Shown piece after piece: positions 53,811 to 64,000 of a stretch of 64,000 nt of DNA (positions are counted from its first letter, which is position 1; each line of letters begins with the position of its first letter). The notes beneath the pieces were generated by a model, which did not search any database, was not told the DNA's origin, and saw nothing but the letters and a program-made list of their open reading frames with translations. The position numbers and the translations under genes were made by a program. Source of the stretch: Uranotaenia lowii (taxonomy: Eukaryota; Arthropoda; Insecta; Diptera; Culicidae); the NCBI RefSeq assembly GCF_029784155.1, contig NC_073691.1, positions 131,440,714 through 131,504,713 of the forward strand. Reading direction: 5' to 3'.

Positions 53811-53815
53811 GAAAA

Positions 53816-54058
53816 TGTGGCTCCTCTGGTAAGCGCCAACTCGGGAGAAAACCGCCCAGCGTGTCCACGCACACACCTGCTCGCCTGCACGTCCAACGGA
53901 GAAATGGACGATTCTTTGCCTCGTCGCATTCGGCTCGATGACGGTTTGCTGTGGCGGCGCCGACGGCTGCGTCGGCGACGCAGTGTTGCCCGATTGACAG
54001 GCGAAGTCAAATCGGCTACACGCTCAGATCGGCTACACGCTCAGATCGGAATACCACA
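53816..54058 (-). repeat. 3' LTR of the gypsy element
   Basis: The LTR is 243 bp, GC-rich, with TGTGG/CCACA termini. It contains a 17-bp tandem duplication (atcggctacacgctcag twice, at about 54011-54046) and appears base-for-base identical to the other LTR. Confidence 0.95.
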
Positions 54059-54075
54059 TCTCACTTCTTCTCTGG
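54059..54075 (-). other. Polypurine tract of the gypsy element
   Basis: The minus strand reads AGAGAAGAAGTGAGA directly upstream of the 3' LTR, where the plus-strand primer should form. Confidence 0.8.
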
Positions 54076-54185
54076 AAAAATGTAGATTTTATTAACAATT
54101 CAAGGGATGGCTTAAAATATCTAACAAACTGAAGAAATTCGGATTTTTTTTCAAAGGAAAGTATATTGTATTCGATGGTAGTTGT

Positions 54186-55819
54186 TTACTGACGTTTGTT
54201 GGTTGCATTTGACATTCGAGACTTTGATAACTCGGCAAGTTCTGTTTCAACCAACCTAACATACTGTTGCAAGTAGCCAGGGGCACGCTTCTCTCTTGCA
54301 GGGCGATGTTGAGGTGGGATATCTTCAGGATTAATTTCAGGGCTGTTTATGTTAGTTGAAGGAATGGTTAGAAAATCTGAGTGTATCCCTGAATCGGTGC
54401 CAGTACTCCTCCAGGGCACAACCTTTTTTGTTTGCGAGACGTGTCGTTTCAAAGTAAGGCCGTCAATGTCTGATAAAAGCAAGTTACCGTTCTCTTCTTC
54501 AAGAACTGTATACTGTTTAGGGTAGAAACGAGATTCTCCTTTTGCTCTTGGGAATCTCTCGATGATAACTTTATCACCACGCTGTATGCGGCACGGTTTG
54601 GCGCCACGGCGTGCGTCCTCCTTCATTTTCCCTTTTAATTTAGCTTCTTTGTCCCTAGATGTAAGAAGATCGTGATCGTGGTGCGTTGAGGCGTATTGAA
54701 AAAGTGGTAGACCCCTCCTTATTCTTCTGCCATGCATTACTTCCTCCGGGGCCACCTTCAAGATGGAATGGGCGGCTGAGTTATGGGCGTGTATTGCTGA
54801 CTGAAGTTCTTCGTGATAATTGTTCTTAGAGGAGGATGCCGCGATCATTGCTTTGTTAATGAGTTTCATACAGTTTTCAGCTAAACCATTTTGCTGAGGG
54901 AATAACGGGGTTGAATATGTGATTTCAATTCCTCTTTGTGCACAGTACTGTTTATATTCTTGTCCATTAAAAGGGGGGCCATTGTCTGACCTTATTTGTT
55001 TTGGGAAACCCTCTTTATCAAAAATATCCTCAAATACTTTCCTTGTATTCTCGAAATTCGTGGATTTGACGACTCTAGCAATTATATATCGAGAAAGATA
55101 ATCTACTAGAACTAGGATATAAATGCCTCCAAATTTGGCGTAGGGGCCATTGAAATCTACGGCTATCATTTCCCAAACTTCTTTAGGAGCTAATACTCGA
55201 GCCATAGGAGTAACGCGTTCGGGTATTCCATTTGTTGCACATATTTCGCAGGATTTAACCCAATTTTCAGCATCTTTTGGCATCCCAGGCCACCATACCC
55301 GTTCTCGCAATATGCTTTTTAGCTTTTCAATCGCTGGGTGACCTTCATGAGCTACAGTGAGAGCCTTTTTGCGTAGCTTTTCTGGAACGACAAAGCATCC
55401 GTTTTTAATTAAGATGCCATTTCTTACGGATAATTCGTCGGCAATCAAATGATATCTTTTCAGATCTTTTGCCCACTGCTCTGTTTCCAAAGCATTCATT
55501 ACATTTAATAATATTTGGTCTTTTGCTAAAGCAGTTTTGATCTCACGTTCGGTAAGAAACTGCACTGCATTAGCTTCTACAGTAGCAACTTCCCAGGGGC
55601 TATCGTTTTCGTTGAACGCGCTGTCTACTCCGTTATACAGTCTGGATTACGGGTCAGCAATATTGTACCTCCCTTTTACAAATTCAATCGTATAGTCGTA
55701 AGGACTCAGCCTGAGGGCCCAACCGTCCGCTCTAGTGAGGGCTCTTTTGGAATTTTCGCGAGATCTGTCCAAGATAAATGTTATTCCCTGAGCGTCCGTC
55801 CGTAAAACGAAATGCCTAC
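54186..55819 (-). pseudogene. Gypsy pol, end of RNase H and integrase (one nonsense codon)
   Basis: This is the downstream part of pol after the intron-like segment. It begins with the RNase H strand holding the last catalytic Asp (RHFVLRTDAQ). A TAA at 55647-55649 occurs where the family usually has Leu (ADP*SRL), and the frame continues to the integrase. Integrase shows an HHCC zinc finger (HEGH ... CEIC) and the DD35E catalytic triad (Asp in AVDFNG, Asp in RSDNGPPF, Glu in QNGLAEN, with 35 residues between the last two). A C-terminal basic tail ends at 54186. Apart from the single nonsense codon it is intact. As a retrotransposon without env it is described only, not restored. Confidence 0.9.
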
Positions 55820-55901
55820 CTATGTAAAACAAATAGTCAGATTGTTTAATAAGTCTTCTGTGAATAAGTATATTAAGAAGAATAAAAGTAAAAGTTCATA
55901 C
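55820..55901 (-). other. Candidate 82-bp spliceosomal intron inside the RNase H coding region
   Basis: On the minus strand the segment begins GTATGAAC and ends TTTTACATAG. It has a CTGAC branch-like motif about 20 nt before the AG and a pyrimidine-rich end (tatttgttttacatag). It is AT-rich, 82 bp long (not a multiple of three), and its removal joins two parts of a conserved RNase H domain in frame with no residue gained or lost relative to the family. Unspliced, the frame stops at 55873. The two frames overlap by about 20 nt, so ribosomal frameshifting is formally possible, but it would leave over 25 extra hydrophobic residues in the domain. Confidence 0.75.
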
Positions 55902-57447
55902 CGAGCAGGAAATACGAAAAATGCTCCACTGCCCACACGGCGGCCAATGCTTCTCTTTGATTTTGAGCATATTTCTTTTCAGTTTCCGTTAGGGCCTTGC
56001 TTGCAAAACTTATTATGCGAGGTGGTTTTTCGAGGGGCTCCTGCACCAGCACTGCTCCAAGTGCGTTTGGACTTGCATCTGTATAGAGAACTGTTGTGTC
56101 GGAGTGTGAAAAGAACCCCAAAGTTATTGTGCATTCGATAATTTTCCGTTTTACCGATTCGAATGCTTCGGTTTGTTCCGGGCCCCATTTCCAGGACCTG
56201 GTAGTTGCGACTGGCCACAACGCGCTGGTGATTTCCGAAAAATGGTCAATATACGGACTGATAAATGCCGCTAGCCCAAGAAAGCTCCGTAGTTCAGAAG
56301 ATGTTGACGGTTCTCGAAATTGACGGATGCTCTTGACTTTCTGTTCTTCGATGTGGAATCCCATTTGATCGATTTCGTGTCCGAGGAACTTAATGCGAGT
56401 TTTATCGTACTCACATTTTGCATAGTTTAATGATAGGTTGTTGTTTCTAAGAATCTCGGAGACTTGTGCGACTGTTTGGTGGAGTTTATCCAATGAGTGA
56501 GAAAATACCAGAATATCATCGATATATACTATTACATCGTCAATGTTTTCTAGTATTCTTGTCATTTCACGTTGAAAGATTTCTGGCGCACAGTTAACAC
56601 CAAACATAAGACGCCTGAAGCGGAACATGCCACACTCAGCTAAAAACGTTGTTAATTCTCTGGATTCTTTTGCCAATTCTAAGTGATAGAAAGCGTTTGT
56701 TAAATCGAGCTTGGTAAAGAATTGAGCTCCGTTTAGTTTGACTTTCATTTCTTCGATAAGAGGGAGGCGAAAATACTCCCTTTTTATAGCTTTATTTGGG
56801 GCCCGCATATTAACCACTAGCCGAAAATCGTTTTTTCCTTTAGCTACGGCCGACATTCCACTTATCCATTTTGGAGCTGTTAAAACTTTCTCGATAATTC
56901 CCTGTTGCTCCATTTCTTTAAGTCGGAGCCTAGCTCCGGATCTGTATGCCGCCGGAACATTATAATATGCATTTCTAACGGGGGGGATCGACTTATCGAT
57001 GCTGAACTTTACAAGGACTCCAGGCATTTTTGGAAATGGCTTAACTGAAACGTGGTTTTCACAAGCGAACACGTCTATTCCGACTTGGAGGAGTTTTAAG
57101 TCACTAGCAGTTTCTCTACTCAAAATGGAACGGTTACCAGCGGGTACCACCAGGAAGTTTCTTATGATGGGAGGTGATCTTGACCCAATAACTTCTATAG
57201 TTGTAGTGAACGCGTGCTCTACTTCCAACGGTTGATGAGCCGCATAGGCTCGTAGTGTGCATGATTTTTGATTTCCAGATTGTTTCATGATTAAATTTTG
57301 CAAATCGGGATTTGTTTTCATATGTTGCCAGTCTGCTCCCCCTATAATGTTAACGTCGGAGCCAGAATCTACTAGGAACTTTAAAACGGTTGACGCTCCA
57401 AGCCGACACGGAATAAGTACGTCTTCCAATGAAAGAGTGTGAATTTC
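55902..57447 (-). CDS. Gypsy pol: protease, reverse transcriptase and start of RNase H
   Basis: The segment encodes an aspartic protease (FLVDSGSDVNIIG, Asp of DSG), a linker, and a reverse transcriptase with VNMRAPNKAIKREYFRLPL, LDLTNAFYHLEL, LMFGVNCAPEIFQR, the YIDDILVFS active site and the FLGHEIDQMGF thumb. The first RNase H strands follow (YTDASPNALGAV, QREALAAVWAVEHF). There is no ATG in this frame upstream of the protease Asp, and a TAG stands at 57448-57450. It can therefore be translated only as a fusion with the upstream gag. The clade within Ty3/gypsy is not resolved; it resembles non-env insect lineages. Confidence 0.9.
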
Positions 57448-57631
57448 CTATGATCAAGGAAACCATACGCATCGAATGACGAGTAGTCAAAACGAGAAGG
57501 AGAGAAGTGAAAGAAACGTGAATGACTTGATGGTATATAAAAAAGGAAAATATTGGTCTTAGTTTTCTAGGGGATTTTATTTGATGAACTTTAATATTTA
57601 GAAATGAACGCGATAACAATTCTGTTTATAC
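57448..57631 (-). other. Candidate 184-bp intron between gag and pol
   Basis: On the minus strand it begins GTATAAAC directly after a gag Lys codon and ends ttccttgatcATAG. The last 80 nt are strikingly pyrimidine-rich (tttctttcacttctctccttctcg). A TTGAC branch-like motif lies about 40 nt from the end. The length is not a multiple of three. Removal joins gag to pol in phase 0 and bypasses the gag stop (57626-57628) and the TAG at 57448-57450. The gag and pol frames do not overlap, so simple frameshifting cannot connect them. Confidence 0.7.
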
Positions 57632-59047
57632 CTTTTCGTCATGTTCTACGTCTCCCTGGGATACGTTGAAGGACTGCCTTTCCGCCTTAGCGCTGTTCAC
57701 GTCCGTACGTTGGTTCTGGTACGATCGATTTTGGGTGCTGTTGCGCTGTTGGAAGCCTTCCCGGTTTCGGTCTTGGAATGGATGGTAACGGTTAGCCTTC
57801 TGCTGATTCGTTCTCGGATGTCCTCGGAAGTTGTTTCGATGTTGATTCTGATGGGAATCTTTCCTCTTTCTACGACAAGTTACCTCGATATGACCTTTTA
57901 TATCGCAGTAGTCACAGTATTCGTTTTTAGCTGGGCATGAGAACCCATTATGGGACAACTCGTTGCAGTTGGGGCAGCGGTTTCGTCGCCCTTTACCGTG
58001 TCTTGCTTTCGAACTCTGCCATTGACGTCTCTGATCGATTGCTGCAATTATTGGTCCTCTTGAGGTACCTTCCTGGGGATCTTCTCTATAAGATATTGTT
58101 TCGAGGGTATCTGGGACAGAGTGAGCTTCATATCGTGTCGCCTGTTGTATGATGGTAGTCAGATCAAGGTTTGATATTCTTGCCGACATTGCTAGTTTTT
58201 TATTAGTCATTCCAGCAATTAATTGGTTGCGCACTGCAAATGTTCTATCTGCTTCTGAAGATCCAAAATTGCAGAGTCTAATTTTGTCCATAAGACGCGC
58301 ATGGAATGTTACTGTCGTTTCTCCAGCAAGTTGCCTCATTTGACCAAATGAGGCATGCTCTGCTGCGGGATCCATCATTGATTTTAAATGATTATTTATG
58401 TTGTCGATTAAGGTAGTGTAACAATTTGGGTCGTCAAGTTTCGGTAACAAATGTGCTGCTCGGATAATACTCTGTAGTTCATCTCCTATCGAGAAGTATA
58501 ACAGTCTTGCTCGATAGGTTTGGTCGGAAATATTTCGTAGGGAGGAAGCTAATTCGAAATGCTCGACATATTTCGACCACATTTCCCACATGCGACTGGA
58601 TGGTACATTTTTCGGAAATGGTTGGATTGGTTCCCATTTAATGAAATTGTTTCCAGCATTCGAAACTGGCAATGATTTAGACAAATCCCAAGATTCTTGT
58701 CCGACCGAAATTTTGGTTTGAATTGGTATGGAGTGATCCTTAATGACCTGGACAAGGTTAGCCATTTCGGTTCGAAGGTGGGAGAGCATTGACGCGACTT
58801 GGTCGTTTTGCGATTGTTCGATGTGGTGTCGGGGGTAAGACAACTGGTTCATCGATTCGTTTGCACAGTAAGGCTTCTCGGATTCCCGGTTAGGCCTACA
58901 ATGCGTGTCAGTAGCTTGTTCCACTAGTGATTCCGATGATACACTCTCATTTTCGTCGCAATCGCTTTCAAAAGTTTCTCCTTCTTCCGACACTACTTCC
59001 TCTGTTGAAACGACTGGGTTTCTCACAAATTTTCCTGATTCTTCCAT
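57626..59047 (-). CDS. Gypsy gag (unspliced reading)
   Basis: The ATG at 59045-59047 (MEESGKF) opens a frame of about 473 codons. It has an acidic N-terminal region, a central helical region (PFPKNVPSSRMWEMWSKYVE; SIGDELQSIIR; FHARLMDKIRLCNFG) of retrotransposon capsid type, and two zinc knuckles near residues 370-400 (CPNCNELSHNGFSC; CDYCDIKGHIEVTC). A basic, Asn/Gln-rich tail follows. It binds and packages element RNA. The stop codon at 57626-57628 lies inside the candidate intron, so unspliced RNA would give Gag and spliced RNA Gag-Pol. Confidence 0.9.
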   Translation of the reverse strand: MEESGKFVRNPVVSTEEVVSEEGETFESDCDENESVSSESLVEQATDTHCRPNRESEKPYCANESMNQLSYPRHHIEQSQNDQVASMLSHLRTEMANLVQVIKDHSIPIQTKISVGQESWDLSKSLPVSNAGNNFIKWEPIQPFPKNVPSSRMWEMWSKYVEHFELASSLRNISDQTYRARLLYFSIGDELQSIIRAAHLLPKLDDPNCYTTLIDNINNHLKSMMDPAAEHASFGQMRQLAGETTVTFHARLMDKIRLCNFGSSEADRTFAVRNQLIAGMTNKKLAMSARISNLDLTTIIQQATRYEAHSVPDTLETISYREDPQEGTSRGPIIAAIDQRRQWQSSKARHGKGRRNRCPNCNELSHNGFSCPAKNEYCDYCDIKGHIEVTCRRKRKDSHQNQHRNNFRGHPRTNQQKANRYHPFQDRNREGFQQRNSTQNRSYQNQRTDVNSAKAERQSFNVSQGDVEHDEKV

Positions 59048-59222
59048 TTTGTATGCCGAAATCGCTTGTTCCAATGGAGATGGTCCGGATCTTGCACTTT
59101 TTTCTCTTCACTTCGTAGTTAAAACACGCACGCACTCAAAACTGTTGAAAAAAAAAAAGAAACTTCCACGTTGGACGGTTTTCTCCCGAAACAAAAAACA
59201 AAAGGTTCTCTTCAAAATTAAA

Positions 59223-59240
59223 AGCCTGCTTCGGTCGCCA
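59223..59240 (-). other. Primer-binding site of the gypsy element (TGGCGACCG type)
   Basis: One base after the 5' LTR the minus strand reads TGGCGACCGAAGCAGG. The first nine bases agree with the tRNA-Arg complement found at 63453 and 10695. The remaining bases differ, so another isoacceptor may be the primer. Confidence 0.7.
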
Positions 59241-59241
59241 T

Positions 59242-59484
59242 TGTGGCTCCTCTGGTAAGCGCCAACTCGGGAGAAAACCGCCCAGCGTGTCCACGCACAC
59301 ACCTGCTCGCCTGCACGTCCAACGGAGAAATGGACGATTCTTTGCCTCGTCGCATTCGGCTCGATGACGGTTTGCTGTGGCGGCGCCGACGGCTGCGTCG
59401 GCGACGCAGTGTTGCCCGATTGACAGGCGAAGTCAAATCGGCTACACGCTCAGATCGGCTACACGCTCAGATCGGAATACCACA
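59242..59484 (-). repeat. 5' LTR of the gypsy element
   Basis: It appears identical to 53816-54058. It provides the promoter for the minus-strand transcript. Confidence 0.95.
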
Positions 59485-59489
59485 GAAAA

Positions 59490-61025: not shown

Positions 61026-62335
61026 AGGTCCTTCTCATAAAATTTTCAACGTTTTTAAAAATGTACCTCCTCATTAGTGGTAAATCAGACAGGTCGACTA
61101 TTGGGACACGTATTGAGAAATTAGAGTGTTCAAACCAAAGTTTAAGGAAAATTACTTTCACTGTGAAGAATATTAACCATATTACCTACTTTTCCTGAAA
61201 TTCATGAAAATCTATGGAAAACTCGGAAAATTTTCCAAGGGCCCAAATATAGGAAGCTTTTGACTTTGGTGTTCGATTTTTAGACCTTAAATCACCATAA
61301 CTTTGTTTCAATTCCAACAAAGGTGCGAATTTTTCAGTAGGGCATATTTCAGAATAATGAAATATTGAATATTTCTAACATTTTTTGCCAGTAAAGTAAA
61401 CACAAACAAGTTTCAGATATTGTTTTGCTTCTAGAGCTGACGAAGAAAGAAAGTGTTTGTGATATTCATAACAAAAATTTTAGTTTTTTTAAATGTTAAA
61501 AAGCTGTAGTGATAATTAACTTGTGAACCACCGTTAATCCATATTAATCCACACCTAACATAAACAAACCATCATAAAGGCCAACTGCCTCAAAATGCAT
61601 AATAATTAAAATAGGAAAGTATTCAATCCCAACCATATGTGACACTACAATACCTCACACCCATAAGCGCTCTTTCCTTCCTTTCCTTTCCACCCGCGTG
61701 TTGTCATACAAAAGTACACTCGATAGAGTGGCATCAAATTGCACAGCCCAATAAGTTCAATAATCCACCAAATTCTGACACAGCAGTAAATAACTTTACC
61801 TATGAGCACTCCAGGCGTCTCGCTCACCCGTATGTAAACCATAGATTAAGAATGATTGTAAAACTCTATATAAATGAATAACTGTTACGAATAAAACTCA
61901 ATCTTTGACTGGAAGTTGAATCTGGCAGTTTTTCGGTCTGAACCGGTAAATCTTTACCCTAGTTCGGTCACCGATAAATTTAATAGAGAAAGCCTTCTCC
62001 AGCTCAAAGGCACGGCATCCAACACAAAGCTGTAATACTTTTTTATGATAATAAGGCCGGAACAAATTTCAAATCCTTCTTTTGTCACTCGGAGTAGAAG
62101 CATCGCGAGGGGGGTAATAAAAAATAATGCGAAAAACAAATAAATTGGAATAAATTGCACAAAAGGTTGTATGAAACCAAATTGTATACAATATCATTGC
62201 ACAAAACCTATAAATCAAGTAATTGTTTATCGTTGTTTGGTTTTGATCACCGCACTTTTCTATGGTTTTCTTTGATTGATAATTTTTCGGTGATTTATTT
62301 AGGACGAAATTAAAACTGCTGTTTTTTTTACGTTT
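61026..62335. other. AT-rich DNA without recognised features
   Basis: A frame at 61639-61881 has no recognised domain. No repeat boundaries were detected. Confidence 0.4.
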
Positions 62336-63330
62336 CGGCCTACTGAGCTTCAATATCAAGCCAAAGTCTTTGAGAGCATGGTTCACTCGGTGCTCTATAA
62401 CGCCACTCGTCACTTGATCTCTGACTATCAACACGGATTCGTTAGGAAGCGATCCACAGTGTCAAACCTGATGTGTTACACCAACTTCCTATCAACCGAA
62501 ATCGAGAAGCGTCGACAAGTGGATGCAGTCTACTTTGACTTTAGTAAGGCTTTCGACAAAGTTCCTCATAGACTCGCCATTGAAAAGCTGGTTCACATGG
62601 GTCTTCCCCCTTGGATGACCGAATGGCTTCAATCGTATTTAACCGATCGAAGAGCGTTTGTCTAGATCAATACATCACGTTCGCGTATTTTTTATTTGAC
62701 CTCAGGTGTCCCGCAAGGCAGTATTCTAGGCCCTTTGATTTTTGTTCTTTTTGTGAACGATCTGGCTTTCCGTTTGAAATCCTGTATGCTGCTATATGCT
62801 GATGATCTTAAGATCTACAAAATAATCTCATCGGTTCTAGATTGCCACGCTCTTCAATCTGACATTGACGAGCTTCTCCTGTGGTGCTTGGAAAATGGGA
62901 TGCAGTTGAACATAAAAAAATGCAAGTCCATAACTTTTAGTCGCCGTCAGTCCAATGTCTGTTTCGAGTACAGTATCAACGGTACCAGCATCGAACAAGT
63001 CAGCTCCATGAACGATCTGGGCGTCATCGTAGATAAAAAACTAACGTTCAGCGACCATATCAGTGCCATCACAGCGAAGGCTTTCTCTGTTCTTGGATTC
63101 GTGAGGCGCAATTCACAATCCTTTCAGGATGTATACACTCTTAAAGCTGTGTACTGTTCCTTGGTGAGAAGTGTATTGGAGTACGCCGCTTGCGTGTGGG
63201 CTCCTTACCATACATCTTGGAGTCTTCGAATCGAAAGGGTGCAGCGATCATTCATTCGTTACGCTCTTAGGTCACTTCCGTGGAACGACCCCATCAATCT
63301 TCCGGATTATGAGAATCGGTGCGTGTTGAT
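62336..63330 (+). pseudogene. CR1/jockey-group reverse transcriptase, truncated at both ends
   Basis: One frame carries RT motifs from AKVFESMVHSVLYN through YQHGFVRKRSTVSN, VDAVYFDFSKAFDKVPH and WLQSYLTDRR to a single TAG at 62663-62665. It resumes in the same frame with TSGVPQGSILGPLIFVLFVNDL, the active site YADDLKIYK, thumb and C-terminal blocks, up to NLPDYENRCVL at 63330. There an LTR element begins and cuts off the remainder. The 5' part (endonuclease) is missing. It is closely related in motif content to 49766-50743 and 46860-48440. Confidence 0.85.
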
Positions 63331-63449
63331 TGTGGTATCCTGACGTAAGAGATAAACAGCAAGAGTAAAGAGAACATAAAAAGCGAGCATAGACGAGAGC
63401 AGAGGCTCAGTCTAGATAGAACCGGCTAGCAGTTCAGATGGGAACATCA
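63331..63449 (+). repeat. Probable 5' LTR (about 119 bp)
   Basis: It starts TGTGGTATCC and ends GGGAACATCA immediately upstream of the primer-binding site. It is unusually short for a gypsy-group LTR. No second copy is in the window. Confidence 0.6.
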
Positions 63450-63452
63450 TAT

Positions 63453-63470
63453 TGGCGACCGTGACAGGAC
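63453..63470 (+). other. tRNA-Arg primer-binding site
   Basis: TGGCGACCGTGACAGGAC is an 18-base complement of the 3' end of an insect tRNA-Arg including CCA, by recall of the Drosophila tRNA-Arg(UCG) sequence. It is the best-preserved of three PBS-type sites in the window. Confidence 0.8.
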
Positions 63471-63794
63471 CACTGCCCCTCTCGAAGAAAGAGAAGTCTT
63501 GATCCGATTAGCTGTGCGAGAGTCGTTGCGAAGGTGCTGCGGAAAGTTGGAGAGGCGTTACGGGACGTTTTTATTAAGTGTTTGAGAGCCGTTGCGTAAG
63601 GTTCTCCGAGAGGTTCGAGAGGCGCTGCGTAAGTTGCAAGAAGTGTGAGGAGTGGGGACGCAATATAAGAGTTGTTGCGCGATATAATGACAGGAACTGC
63701 GGGATGGCGTGCAGCACGTGAGTGATGTGTGAGCAAGGGGGTGTGCTAGATTTAGTGGTGCGCAAAATGTTCTACAGTGAATATGCAAGAAAGA

Positions 63795-64000
63795 AATGAG
63801 AACACTAGTCCGGGTTAGGCCCAAGGCAGTGTTATTATTTGCAGTCGGGGTTAGCCCAAGGCGCAGATAGTTGAAACTATAACACTAGTCTGAGTTGAGC
63901 TCAAGGTAGTGTAGATTTGTAGAAATTTGCAGTCGGGAATGGCCCATGGCGCAAATTAATGGAACGAAACACTAGTCCGAGTTAAGCTCAAGGCAGTGTT
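63795..64000 (+). repeat. Tandem array of two alternating hairpin motifs in the LTR element leader
   Basis: Motif A (ACACTAGTCCGRGTTARGCY..AAGGCAGTGT) occurs at about 63803-63833, 63880-63910 and 63969-64000. Motif B (TTTGCAGTCGGG...GCCCA.GGCGCA) occurs at about 63838-63866 and 63925-63955. Each can fold: ACACTA with TAGTGT for A, TTTGC with GCAAA for B. The A-to-A spacing is roughly 77-89 bp and the array continues beyond the window edge. Confidence 0.65.

What the first reader, a model, noticed from the sequence alone, without database searches (positions are those of the whole stretch)
57448..57631. Intron-like segment separates gag from pol in a young gypsy element
The gag and pol frames are about 180 bp apart, do not overlap, and pol has no start codon before its protease active site. 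The gap begins GTATAAAC and ends in a long pyrimidine tract and CATAG. Removing it fuses gag and pol in phase 0. Ty3/gypsy elements normally use frameshifting, readthrough or a single ORF. Splicing control here would mean unspliced RNA makes Gag and serves as genome, while spliced RNA makes Gag-Pol, a retrovirus-like or copia-like strategy in reverse.
Basis: partly seen in the sequence, partly recalled or inferred. Interest (0 to 1): 0.88.

Follow-up and report, generated by a model that had tools for sequence, protein, structure and literature searches.

The report
Intron between retrotransposon gag and pol
A recently inserted mosquito-type jumping element appears to carry a splicing intron between its capsid gene and its enzyme gene, so that the host's splicing machinery, rather than a ribosome trick, would set how much enzyme is made; relatives in other mosquitoes show the same boundary.

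Summary
On the minus strand, window 57631..57448 is a 184-nt GT...AG segment between a complete gag ORF and a pol ORF with no ATG before its protease site. Frames match at phase 0. The element is a Ty3/gypsy insertion with identical 243-bp LTRs and a 5-bp target duplication.

The segment is not copy-specific. In relatives (those with organism names are mosquitoes), contig gag ORFs stop 1-4 codons after a Q|V step (4 of 4). Contig pol ORFs of the close clade that reach upstream have Q just before the conserved block (10 of 10). In NCBI gag-pol gene models the residue before the junction is K, Q or E in 48 of 50, the signature of an exon ending in AG.

I also found a second intron in the same copy, 82 nt in RNase H (55901..55820), matched in one close relative and absent from others. 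Best reading: intron-retaining RNA makes Gag and serves as genome; spliced RNA makes Gag-Pol. Splicing itself is inferred: no RNA data and no second DNA copy were available. Plant Ogre elements are a precedent; my searches listed none for an animal Ty3/gypsy. This copy carries one in-frame stop codon.

The parts
53816..59484 (-). Ty3/gypsy LTR retrotransposon (whole insertion)
   Evidence: 243-bp direct repeats, 100% identical; ORFs; domains
59242..59484 (-). 5' LTR, TG...CA
53816..54058 (-). 3' LTR, TG...CA
59485..59489 (-). target-site duplication TTTTC, upstream side
   Evidence: read
53811..53815 (-). target-site duplication TTTTC, downstream side
   Evidence: read
59226..59240 (-). likely primer binding site TGGCGACCGAAGCAG
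   Evidence: read; tRNA not identified
54059..54073 (-). purine-rich tract before the 3' LTR
   Evidence: read
57626..59047 (-). gag ORF, 473 aa, two CCHC knuckles; stop TAA lies in the second codon of intron 1
   Evidence: similar to gag parts of mosquito gag-pol models
57448..57631 (-). intron 1: 184 nt, AAG|GTATAA ... CATAG|GAA, phase 0, between gag and protease
   Evidence: boundary shared by relatives
55902..57447 (-). pol exon: protease (DSG at residue 27), reverse transcriptase, first part of RNase H
55820..55901 (-). intron 2: 82 nt, CTCG|GTATGA ... TACATAG|GTAGG, phase 1, inside RNase H (FLLG / RHF)
   Evidence: most relatives continuous here, P0002 interrupted at the same residue
55650..55819 (-). 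pol exon: rest of RNase H
   Evidence: frame arithmetic; sequence
55647..55649 (-). in-frame TAA between RNase H and integrase; this copy is broken here
54186..55646 (-). pol, integrase part (H2C2 zinc binding, rve core)

Best explanation
The segment is a spliceosomal intron that a mosquito lineage of Ty3/gypsy retrotransposons keeps at the gag-pol boundary. RNA that keeps the intron is translated to Gag, because the gag frame meets a stop 1-4 codons inside the intron, and the same unspliced RNA is packaged and copied. RNA from which the intron is removed joins gag to protease-reverse transcriptase in one frame and is translated to Gag-Pol. A mediocre donor would keep splicing partial and so set the Gag to Gag-Pol ratio. 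Shown: intron-like anatomy, frame match, a shared boundary signature in relatives. Inferred: that splicing happens, that it is partial, that unspliced RNA is the one reverse-transcribed (deduced because inserted copies keep their introns), and that intron 2 must also be removed for a complete Pol.
For: 1) Anatomy: GT-AG, phase 0, no overlap of the gag and pol frames, no start codon before the DSG; acceptors of introns 1 and 2 tie for rank 2 of 367 AG sites by a simple score. 2) Acceptor side: 10 of 10 contig pol ORFs of the close clade (59% identity or more) that extend upstream have Q just before the conserved xINALS block, with F before it in 6 (P0015 is shifted by one residue, P0043 and P0091 are near duplicates). 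3) Donor side: 4 of 4 contig gag ORFs end 1-4 codons after Q|V (P0150 and P0151 nearly the same; P0172 could also be read as K|V four residues earlier), and the window and NCBI model P0165 end after K|V. 4) Joined side: 50 NCBI gag-pol models, none from contigs, join at that boundary; residue -1 is K/Q/E in 48 of 50 (Q 30), against 29, 17 and 17 of 50 at -2, -3, -4 (Q once at each); residue +1 varies and is V in none. So the V that ends unspliced gag ORFs looks intron-encoded. 5) Other introns in the lineage behave alike: window intron 2 is matched at the same residue by P0002, while P0002's sister P0169 (79% identical) is uninterrupted. An integrase-N-terminal intron appears in P0170 as an in-frame 19-residue insert that can be read as starting with V and ending with Q, ends the ORF of P0005 (92% identical to P0170), and is absent in P0019 (79% identical to P0170). 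That trait follows the tree: 3 changes against a mean of 17.5 for shuffled labels, 0 of 500 as low.
Against: No RNA evidence of any kind. No other DNA copy could be read: the own-genome search did not complete (12 tries), and scans of viral and prokaryote contigs found no relative. NCBI models are predictions whose exon structure was not visible; some could be intronless copies. In this copy the donors are ordinary (6/9 and 5/9; 30 and 93 of 266 GT sites do as well), the AG-free run and the open gag frame are each reached in 6% of shuffles, and the intron has no special RNA structure (z 0.79). This copy has an in-frame stop in pol. Only four contig gag ORFs were seen. Two of 50 models do not fit at -1 (P0142, P0168) and P0154 lacks the block. 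The end of gag is rich in K and E anyway, so Q is the more telling residue.
Confidence: 0.8

Rival explanations
1. Copy-specific insertion or decay: the gap is damage in one copy of a normal single-ORF or frameshifting element.
For: This copy is broken by an in-frame TAA, and only one DNA copy could be read.
Against: Relatives show the same boundary with donor- and acceptor-like signatures; the LTRs are identical, leaving little time for damage that happens to be GT-AG and in phase.
Confidence: 0.05
2. Translational recoding: TAA readthrough followed by a +1 frameshift makes Gag-Pol from unspliced RNA.
For: After the TAA the gag frame stays open through the intron to about 57350, overlapping the pol frame by about 95 nt.
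Against: Two recoding events would be needed; the open frame is reached in 6% of shuffles; relatives' gag ORFs end with different tails but just after Q|V or K|V; it does not explain K/Q/E at the junction.
Confidence: 0.04
3. Pol is made separately, foamy-virus-like, from an mRNA spliced from a 5' leader donor into the 57448 acceptor.
For: The acceptor scores well, and a separate Pol needs no Gag fusion.
Against: Pol has no Met before the DSG, and the donor side at the end of gag is shared by relatives and in phase with pol. Leader donors and leader ATGs were not tested.
Confidence: 0.06
4. The introns are real but merely tolerated: spliced constitutively, with Gag levels set otherwise; daughter copies keep them because a minority of unspliced RNA is packaged.
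For: Introns inside pol come and go between relatives.
Against: The gag-pol intron was not seen to be lost in any of the 14 contig ORFs that show the boundary, unlike the pol introns, and it sits where retroelements regulate Gag versus Gag-Pol. The sample is small.
Confidence: 0.12

Closest known systems
Ogre elements (plant Ty3/gypsy, Tat lineage)
   Same: [quoted passage not shown] passage in PMC12786077). Works the same way in principle.
   Different: In Ogre the first ORF holds gag and protease and the intron lies before RT; here it lies between gag and protease. The host is a plant, and Ogre has an extra RNase H domain (passage). Here further introns occur inside pol.
Ty1/copia elements that splice (copia, BARE, EVADE)
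   Same: Splicing makes subgenomic RNA apart from the full-length RNA (EVADE: passage; BARE: title and abstract start in the listing).
   Different: There, as I recall, the spliced RNA makes Gag and the unspliced RNA Gag-Pol: the reverse of what is inferred here.
Cer1 of C. elegans
   Same: An animal LTR retrotransposon with used splice sites whose unspliced genomic RNA must be exported (abstract and passages of PMC10309623).
   Different: Cer1 has no stop between gag and pol; splicing makes a separate protein, CERV, that exports genomic RNA.
Mag-like elements of Culex quinquefasciatus
   Same: Mosquito Ty3/gypsy elements (abstract and seven passages of PMC3286476).
   Different: In those passages introns are mentioned only for host genes, not inside the elements.

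Membership tests
Ty3/gypsy (Metaviridae) LTR retrotransposon | Pol order protease, RT, RNase H, integrase | tested here: met
   Pfam RVT_1, RT_RNaseH, Integrase_H2C2, rve in that order; protease by DSG motif only
Ty3/gypsy (Metaviridae) LTR retrotransposon | LTRs TG...CA, short target duplication, primer site and purine tract | tested here: met
   duplication, primer site and tract read by eye
Mag clade | RT groups with Mag reference elements in a tree | not tested
   No Mag reference sequence was used; relatives are named K02A2.6-like, which I recall to be Mag-like
Ogre lineage | Intron between gag-protease ORF and RT-RNase H-integrase ORF | tested here: not met
   The intron lies upstream of protease
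Ogre lineage | Plant host, extra RNase H | tested here: not met
   Listed relatives with an organism name are mosquitoes; no extra RNase H hit
Spliceosomal intron | GT-AG ends, matching phase, interruption of a continuous protein | tested here: met
   both introns; the intron 2 boundary is fixed by homology only to within about four nucleotides
Spliceosomal intron | Same position in relatives | tested here: met
   At protein level only. Intron 1. Intron 2: one close relative, P0002
Spliceosomal intron | Removed from RNA | not testable with these tools
   No RNA reads available
Foamy-virus-like separate Pol | Pol has its own start codon | tested here: not met
   First Met is residue 43, after the DSG; a leader ATG was not tested

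The most novel reading that the evidence does not exclude
A mosquito-wide lineage of Ty3/gypsy retrotransposons uses regulated intron retention, not recoding, to set Gag versus Gag-Pol. It carries several spliceosomal introns through repeated rounds of reverse transcription, gaining and losing those inside pol while the gag-pol intron is held by selection. This would be an animal counterpart of Ogre that arose separately, and a natural setting for watching intron gain and loss in a retroelement.
Probability: 0.55. Interest if true: 0.8.

Novelty: new variant of a known kind. Interest (0 to 1): 0.66.

Why it matters
As generally understood (recalled), the Gag to Gag-Pol ratio in Ty3/gypsy elements is set by ribosomal recoding or protein turnover. 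An animal lineage that hands this job to the splicing machinery must also export and package unspliced RNA, a problem usually discussed for retroviruses and Cer1. Because reverse transcription of spliced RNA erases introns, introns that persist at fixed positions across mosquito genera would show that genomic and messenger RNA are kept apart, and they would allow intron gain and loss to be followed in datable copies.

Tried and rejected
Recoding: the gag frame is open past its TAA to about 57350, but pol would need readthrough plus a +1 shift; rejected as unlikely.

Separate Pol: no start codon before the DSG; leader ATGs were not tested.

RNA structure in the intron: none beyond chance (z 0.79).

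Single-copy statistics: donor rank, AG-free run and open frame are not decisive alone. The intron 2 boundary is fixed by homology only to within about four nucleotides, because GGTA occurs at both ends. Likewise the insert in P0170 is fixed at 19 residues but its register is not, because QQV occurs at both ends.

DNA of relatives: scans with a single pol and with an alignment of viral and prokaryote contigs found no relative. The own-genome search was sent 12 times in the same form and never answered.

Gag query: the window's own gag found only one protein, so donor-side evidence rests mostly.

Literature: searches listed no title about an intron between gag and pol in a mosquito or other animal Ty3/gypsy. 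Three of these lists were cut: 30 of 63, 12 of 761, 15 of 43. I saw listings, plus passages of four papers and one outline. Subscription papers are mostly not held, and Steinbauerova 2008 on Ogre was not held.

Rows dropped: of 172 proteins, one search used 50; one more with both knuckle and protease (P0154) lacked the motif, 52 had a protease but no upstream knuckle, and the rest lacked the protease pattern. In one search the junction was set by fixed spacing from the conserved block, so P0121 (E|QV or EQ|V) and P0137 are ambiguous by a residue. First try of that count used a wrong protease pattern and kept only 2 rows. For the tree label, 17 of 24 interrupted rows came from a pattern and 7 I added by eye; two of those 7 (P0006, P0023) had matched the continuous pattern by chance. 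P0170, which reads through the insert in frame, was left unlabelled.

Full report
The element. The finding lies in an LTR retrotransposon on the minus strand, window 59484..53816. Its LTRs are 243 bp and 100% identical, begin TG and end CA, and are flanked by a 5-bp duplication TTTTC. A likely primer site follows the 5' LTR and a purine tract precedes the 3' LTR. Pfam finds RT, RNase H, integrase zinc-binding and integrase core in Ty3/gypsy order. Gag has no Pfam hit at E 0.01 but has two CCHC knuckles and resembles the gag part of mosquito gag-pol models (for example 33% over P0009 residues 1-376).

The segment. Gag ends GAC GAA AAG GTA TAA. The GT of the proposed donor begins at 57631 and the gag stop is the second codon from there. 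Pol opens at 57447, directly after the CATAG ending at 57448. The segment is 184 nt, the frames meet at phase 0, and pol has no Met before its protease DSG. The description is therefore accurate. In this one copy the splice sites are plausible but not remarkable: acceptor tied for rank 2 of 367 AG sites, donor 6 of 9 matches (30 of 266 GT sites do as well), AG-free run reached in 6% of shuffles.

A second intron. The pol frame breaks again inside RNase H. At 55901..55820 there are 82 nt, GTATGA...TACATAG, between the codons for FLLG and RHFVLRTDAQG, with matching phase 1. Relatives such as P0001, P0005 and P0169 run straight through here. One close relative, P0002 (64% identical to the window), breaks at the same residue with LLG-MYVCIFI, consistent with a GTATG donor. 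The distant P0078 (49%) also breaks there with an unlike tail. The element also has one in-frame TAA at 55649-55647, so this copy would not make full Pol even if spliced.

Relatives. A search with the first pol piece gave 331 proteins, of which the best 120 were listed and used; a search with residues 60-440 of P0009 gave 64; the window gag gave 1: 172 distinct proteins in all. Every listed relative with an organism name is a mosquito: Armigeres, Malaya, Wyeomyia, Uranotaenia, Toxorhynchites, Aedes, Topomyia, Sabethes and Ochlerotatus. The other 100, by my sorting of the source column, are ORFs from assembled contigs without organism names; on the RT tree those of the close clade mix with the mosquito ones.

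Acceptor side. Of the contig pol ORFs in the close clade (59% identity or more), 10 extend upstream of the conserved block xINALS. All 10 have Q there (P0015 one residue off; P0043 and P0091 are 99% identical), with F before it in 6. TTYCAG would be a typical acceptor (recalled), while a TAG acceptor such as the window's would simply end the ORF. Distant contig relatives (40-51% identity: P0062, P0074, P0080, P0094, P0106, P0115) are mixed: P0094 and P0115 have Q there, the other four do not; P0094 looks like continuous coding upstream, and P0115 looks like a pyrimidine tract. I draw nothing firm from them.

Donor side. All 4 contig gag ORFs with a knuckle (P0150, P0151, P0152, P0172; the first two alike in this part) end 1-4 codons after Q|V; the window and the NCBI model P0165 end after K|V.

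Joined side. Fifty NCBI models hold gag and pol joined at this boundary; none of the contig ORFs does. Residue -1 is Q in 30, K in 13, E in 5, P in 1 and A in 1. K/Q/E reaches 29, 17 and 17 of 50 at -2 to -4 and 20 of 49 at -5, and Q only 1, 1, 1 and 3. Residue +1 is varied and V in none. Q, K and E are the residues whose codons can end in AG, and CAG and AAG are the usual exon ends (recalled). This reads as a DNA-level splice constraint, not a protein one. The models are predictions and their exon tables were not visible, so some may be intronless copies; they come from nine genera, and many are related to one another.

More introns in relatives. Contig ORFs also stop at recurring places: after L-x-x|V at the start of integrase (24 rows, the residue before V being E, Q or K in 23 and R in one), after GAVLVQ or GAALVQ followed by V (P0046, P0048, P0055, P0074), and at or just after DYRSR (9 rows). 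P0170 shows the first of these in full: where P0019 reads LQQ-VSEA, P0170 carries 19 more residues, VIWLICTIFYNIDFYQLQQ in one of the possible registers, starting with V and ending with Q, in frame; the 92% identical P0005 stops there. On a quick RT tree of 144 rows this trait needs 3 changes, against 17.5 on average with shuffled labels. The tree has many weak branches, and near relatives inflate such clustering. The DYRSR ends could be contig ends.

Mechanism. The simplest account is that unspliced RNA makes Gag and is the genome, and spliced RNA makes Gag-Pol. The genome role of unspliced RNA follows from the persistence of introns in inserted copies. Intron 1 was not seen lost in any of the 14 contig ORFs that show the boundary (10 pol, 4 gag), whereas introns inside pol are present in one and absent in another of close relatives; this fits selection on intron 1, but the sample is small.

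Known or new. Plant Ogre elements have an intron between gag-protease and RT that is spliced from part of the transcripts (passages). The present case differs in position, host and number of introns. Copia-type elements do the reverse (direction recalled). My eight library searches (three of the lists were cut) listed nothing on a gag-pol intron in an animal Ty3/gypsy, and many journals are not held. I therefore call it a new variant of a known kind.

Noticed in passing
window 55901..55820 (minus): A second 82-nt GT-AG intron inside the RNase H domain of the same element, outside the coordinates given; GGTA occurs at both of its ends.
   Followed up: yes
window 55649..55647 (minus): In-frame TAA between RNase H and integrase in an otherwise young copy.
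   Followed up: partly
P0170 versus P0005 and P0019: An integrase-N-terminal intron visible as an in-frame 19-residue insert in one relative, ending the ORF in another, absent in a third; QQV flanks the insert on both sides, which could also mean a tandem duplication took part in its origin.
   Followed up: partly
P0011, P0016, P0021, P0028, P0031, P0032, P0042, P0088, P0103: Nine relatives' ORFs end at or just after DYRSR in the integrase core; perhaps another intron, perhaps contig ends.
   Followed up: no
P0046, P0048, P0055, P0074: Four relatives' ORFs break right after GAVLVQ or GAALVQ, followed by V, perhaps another phase-0 intron.
   Followed up: no
window about 63330-64000 (plus): What looks like the 5' end of another LTR element (TGTGGTATCC start, primer site TGGCGACCGTGACAGGA near 63456, 88-bp tandem repeat 63837-63999) next to a LINE-type RT ORF at 62303-63343, cut off by the window end.
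   Followed up: no
window 59433-59475: A 17-bp unit repeated 2.5 times at the start of the LTR.
   Followed up: no
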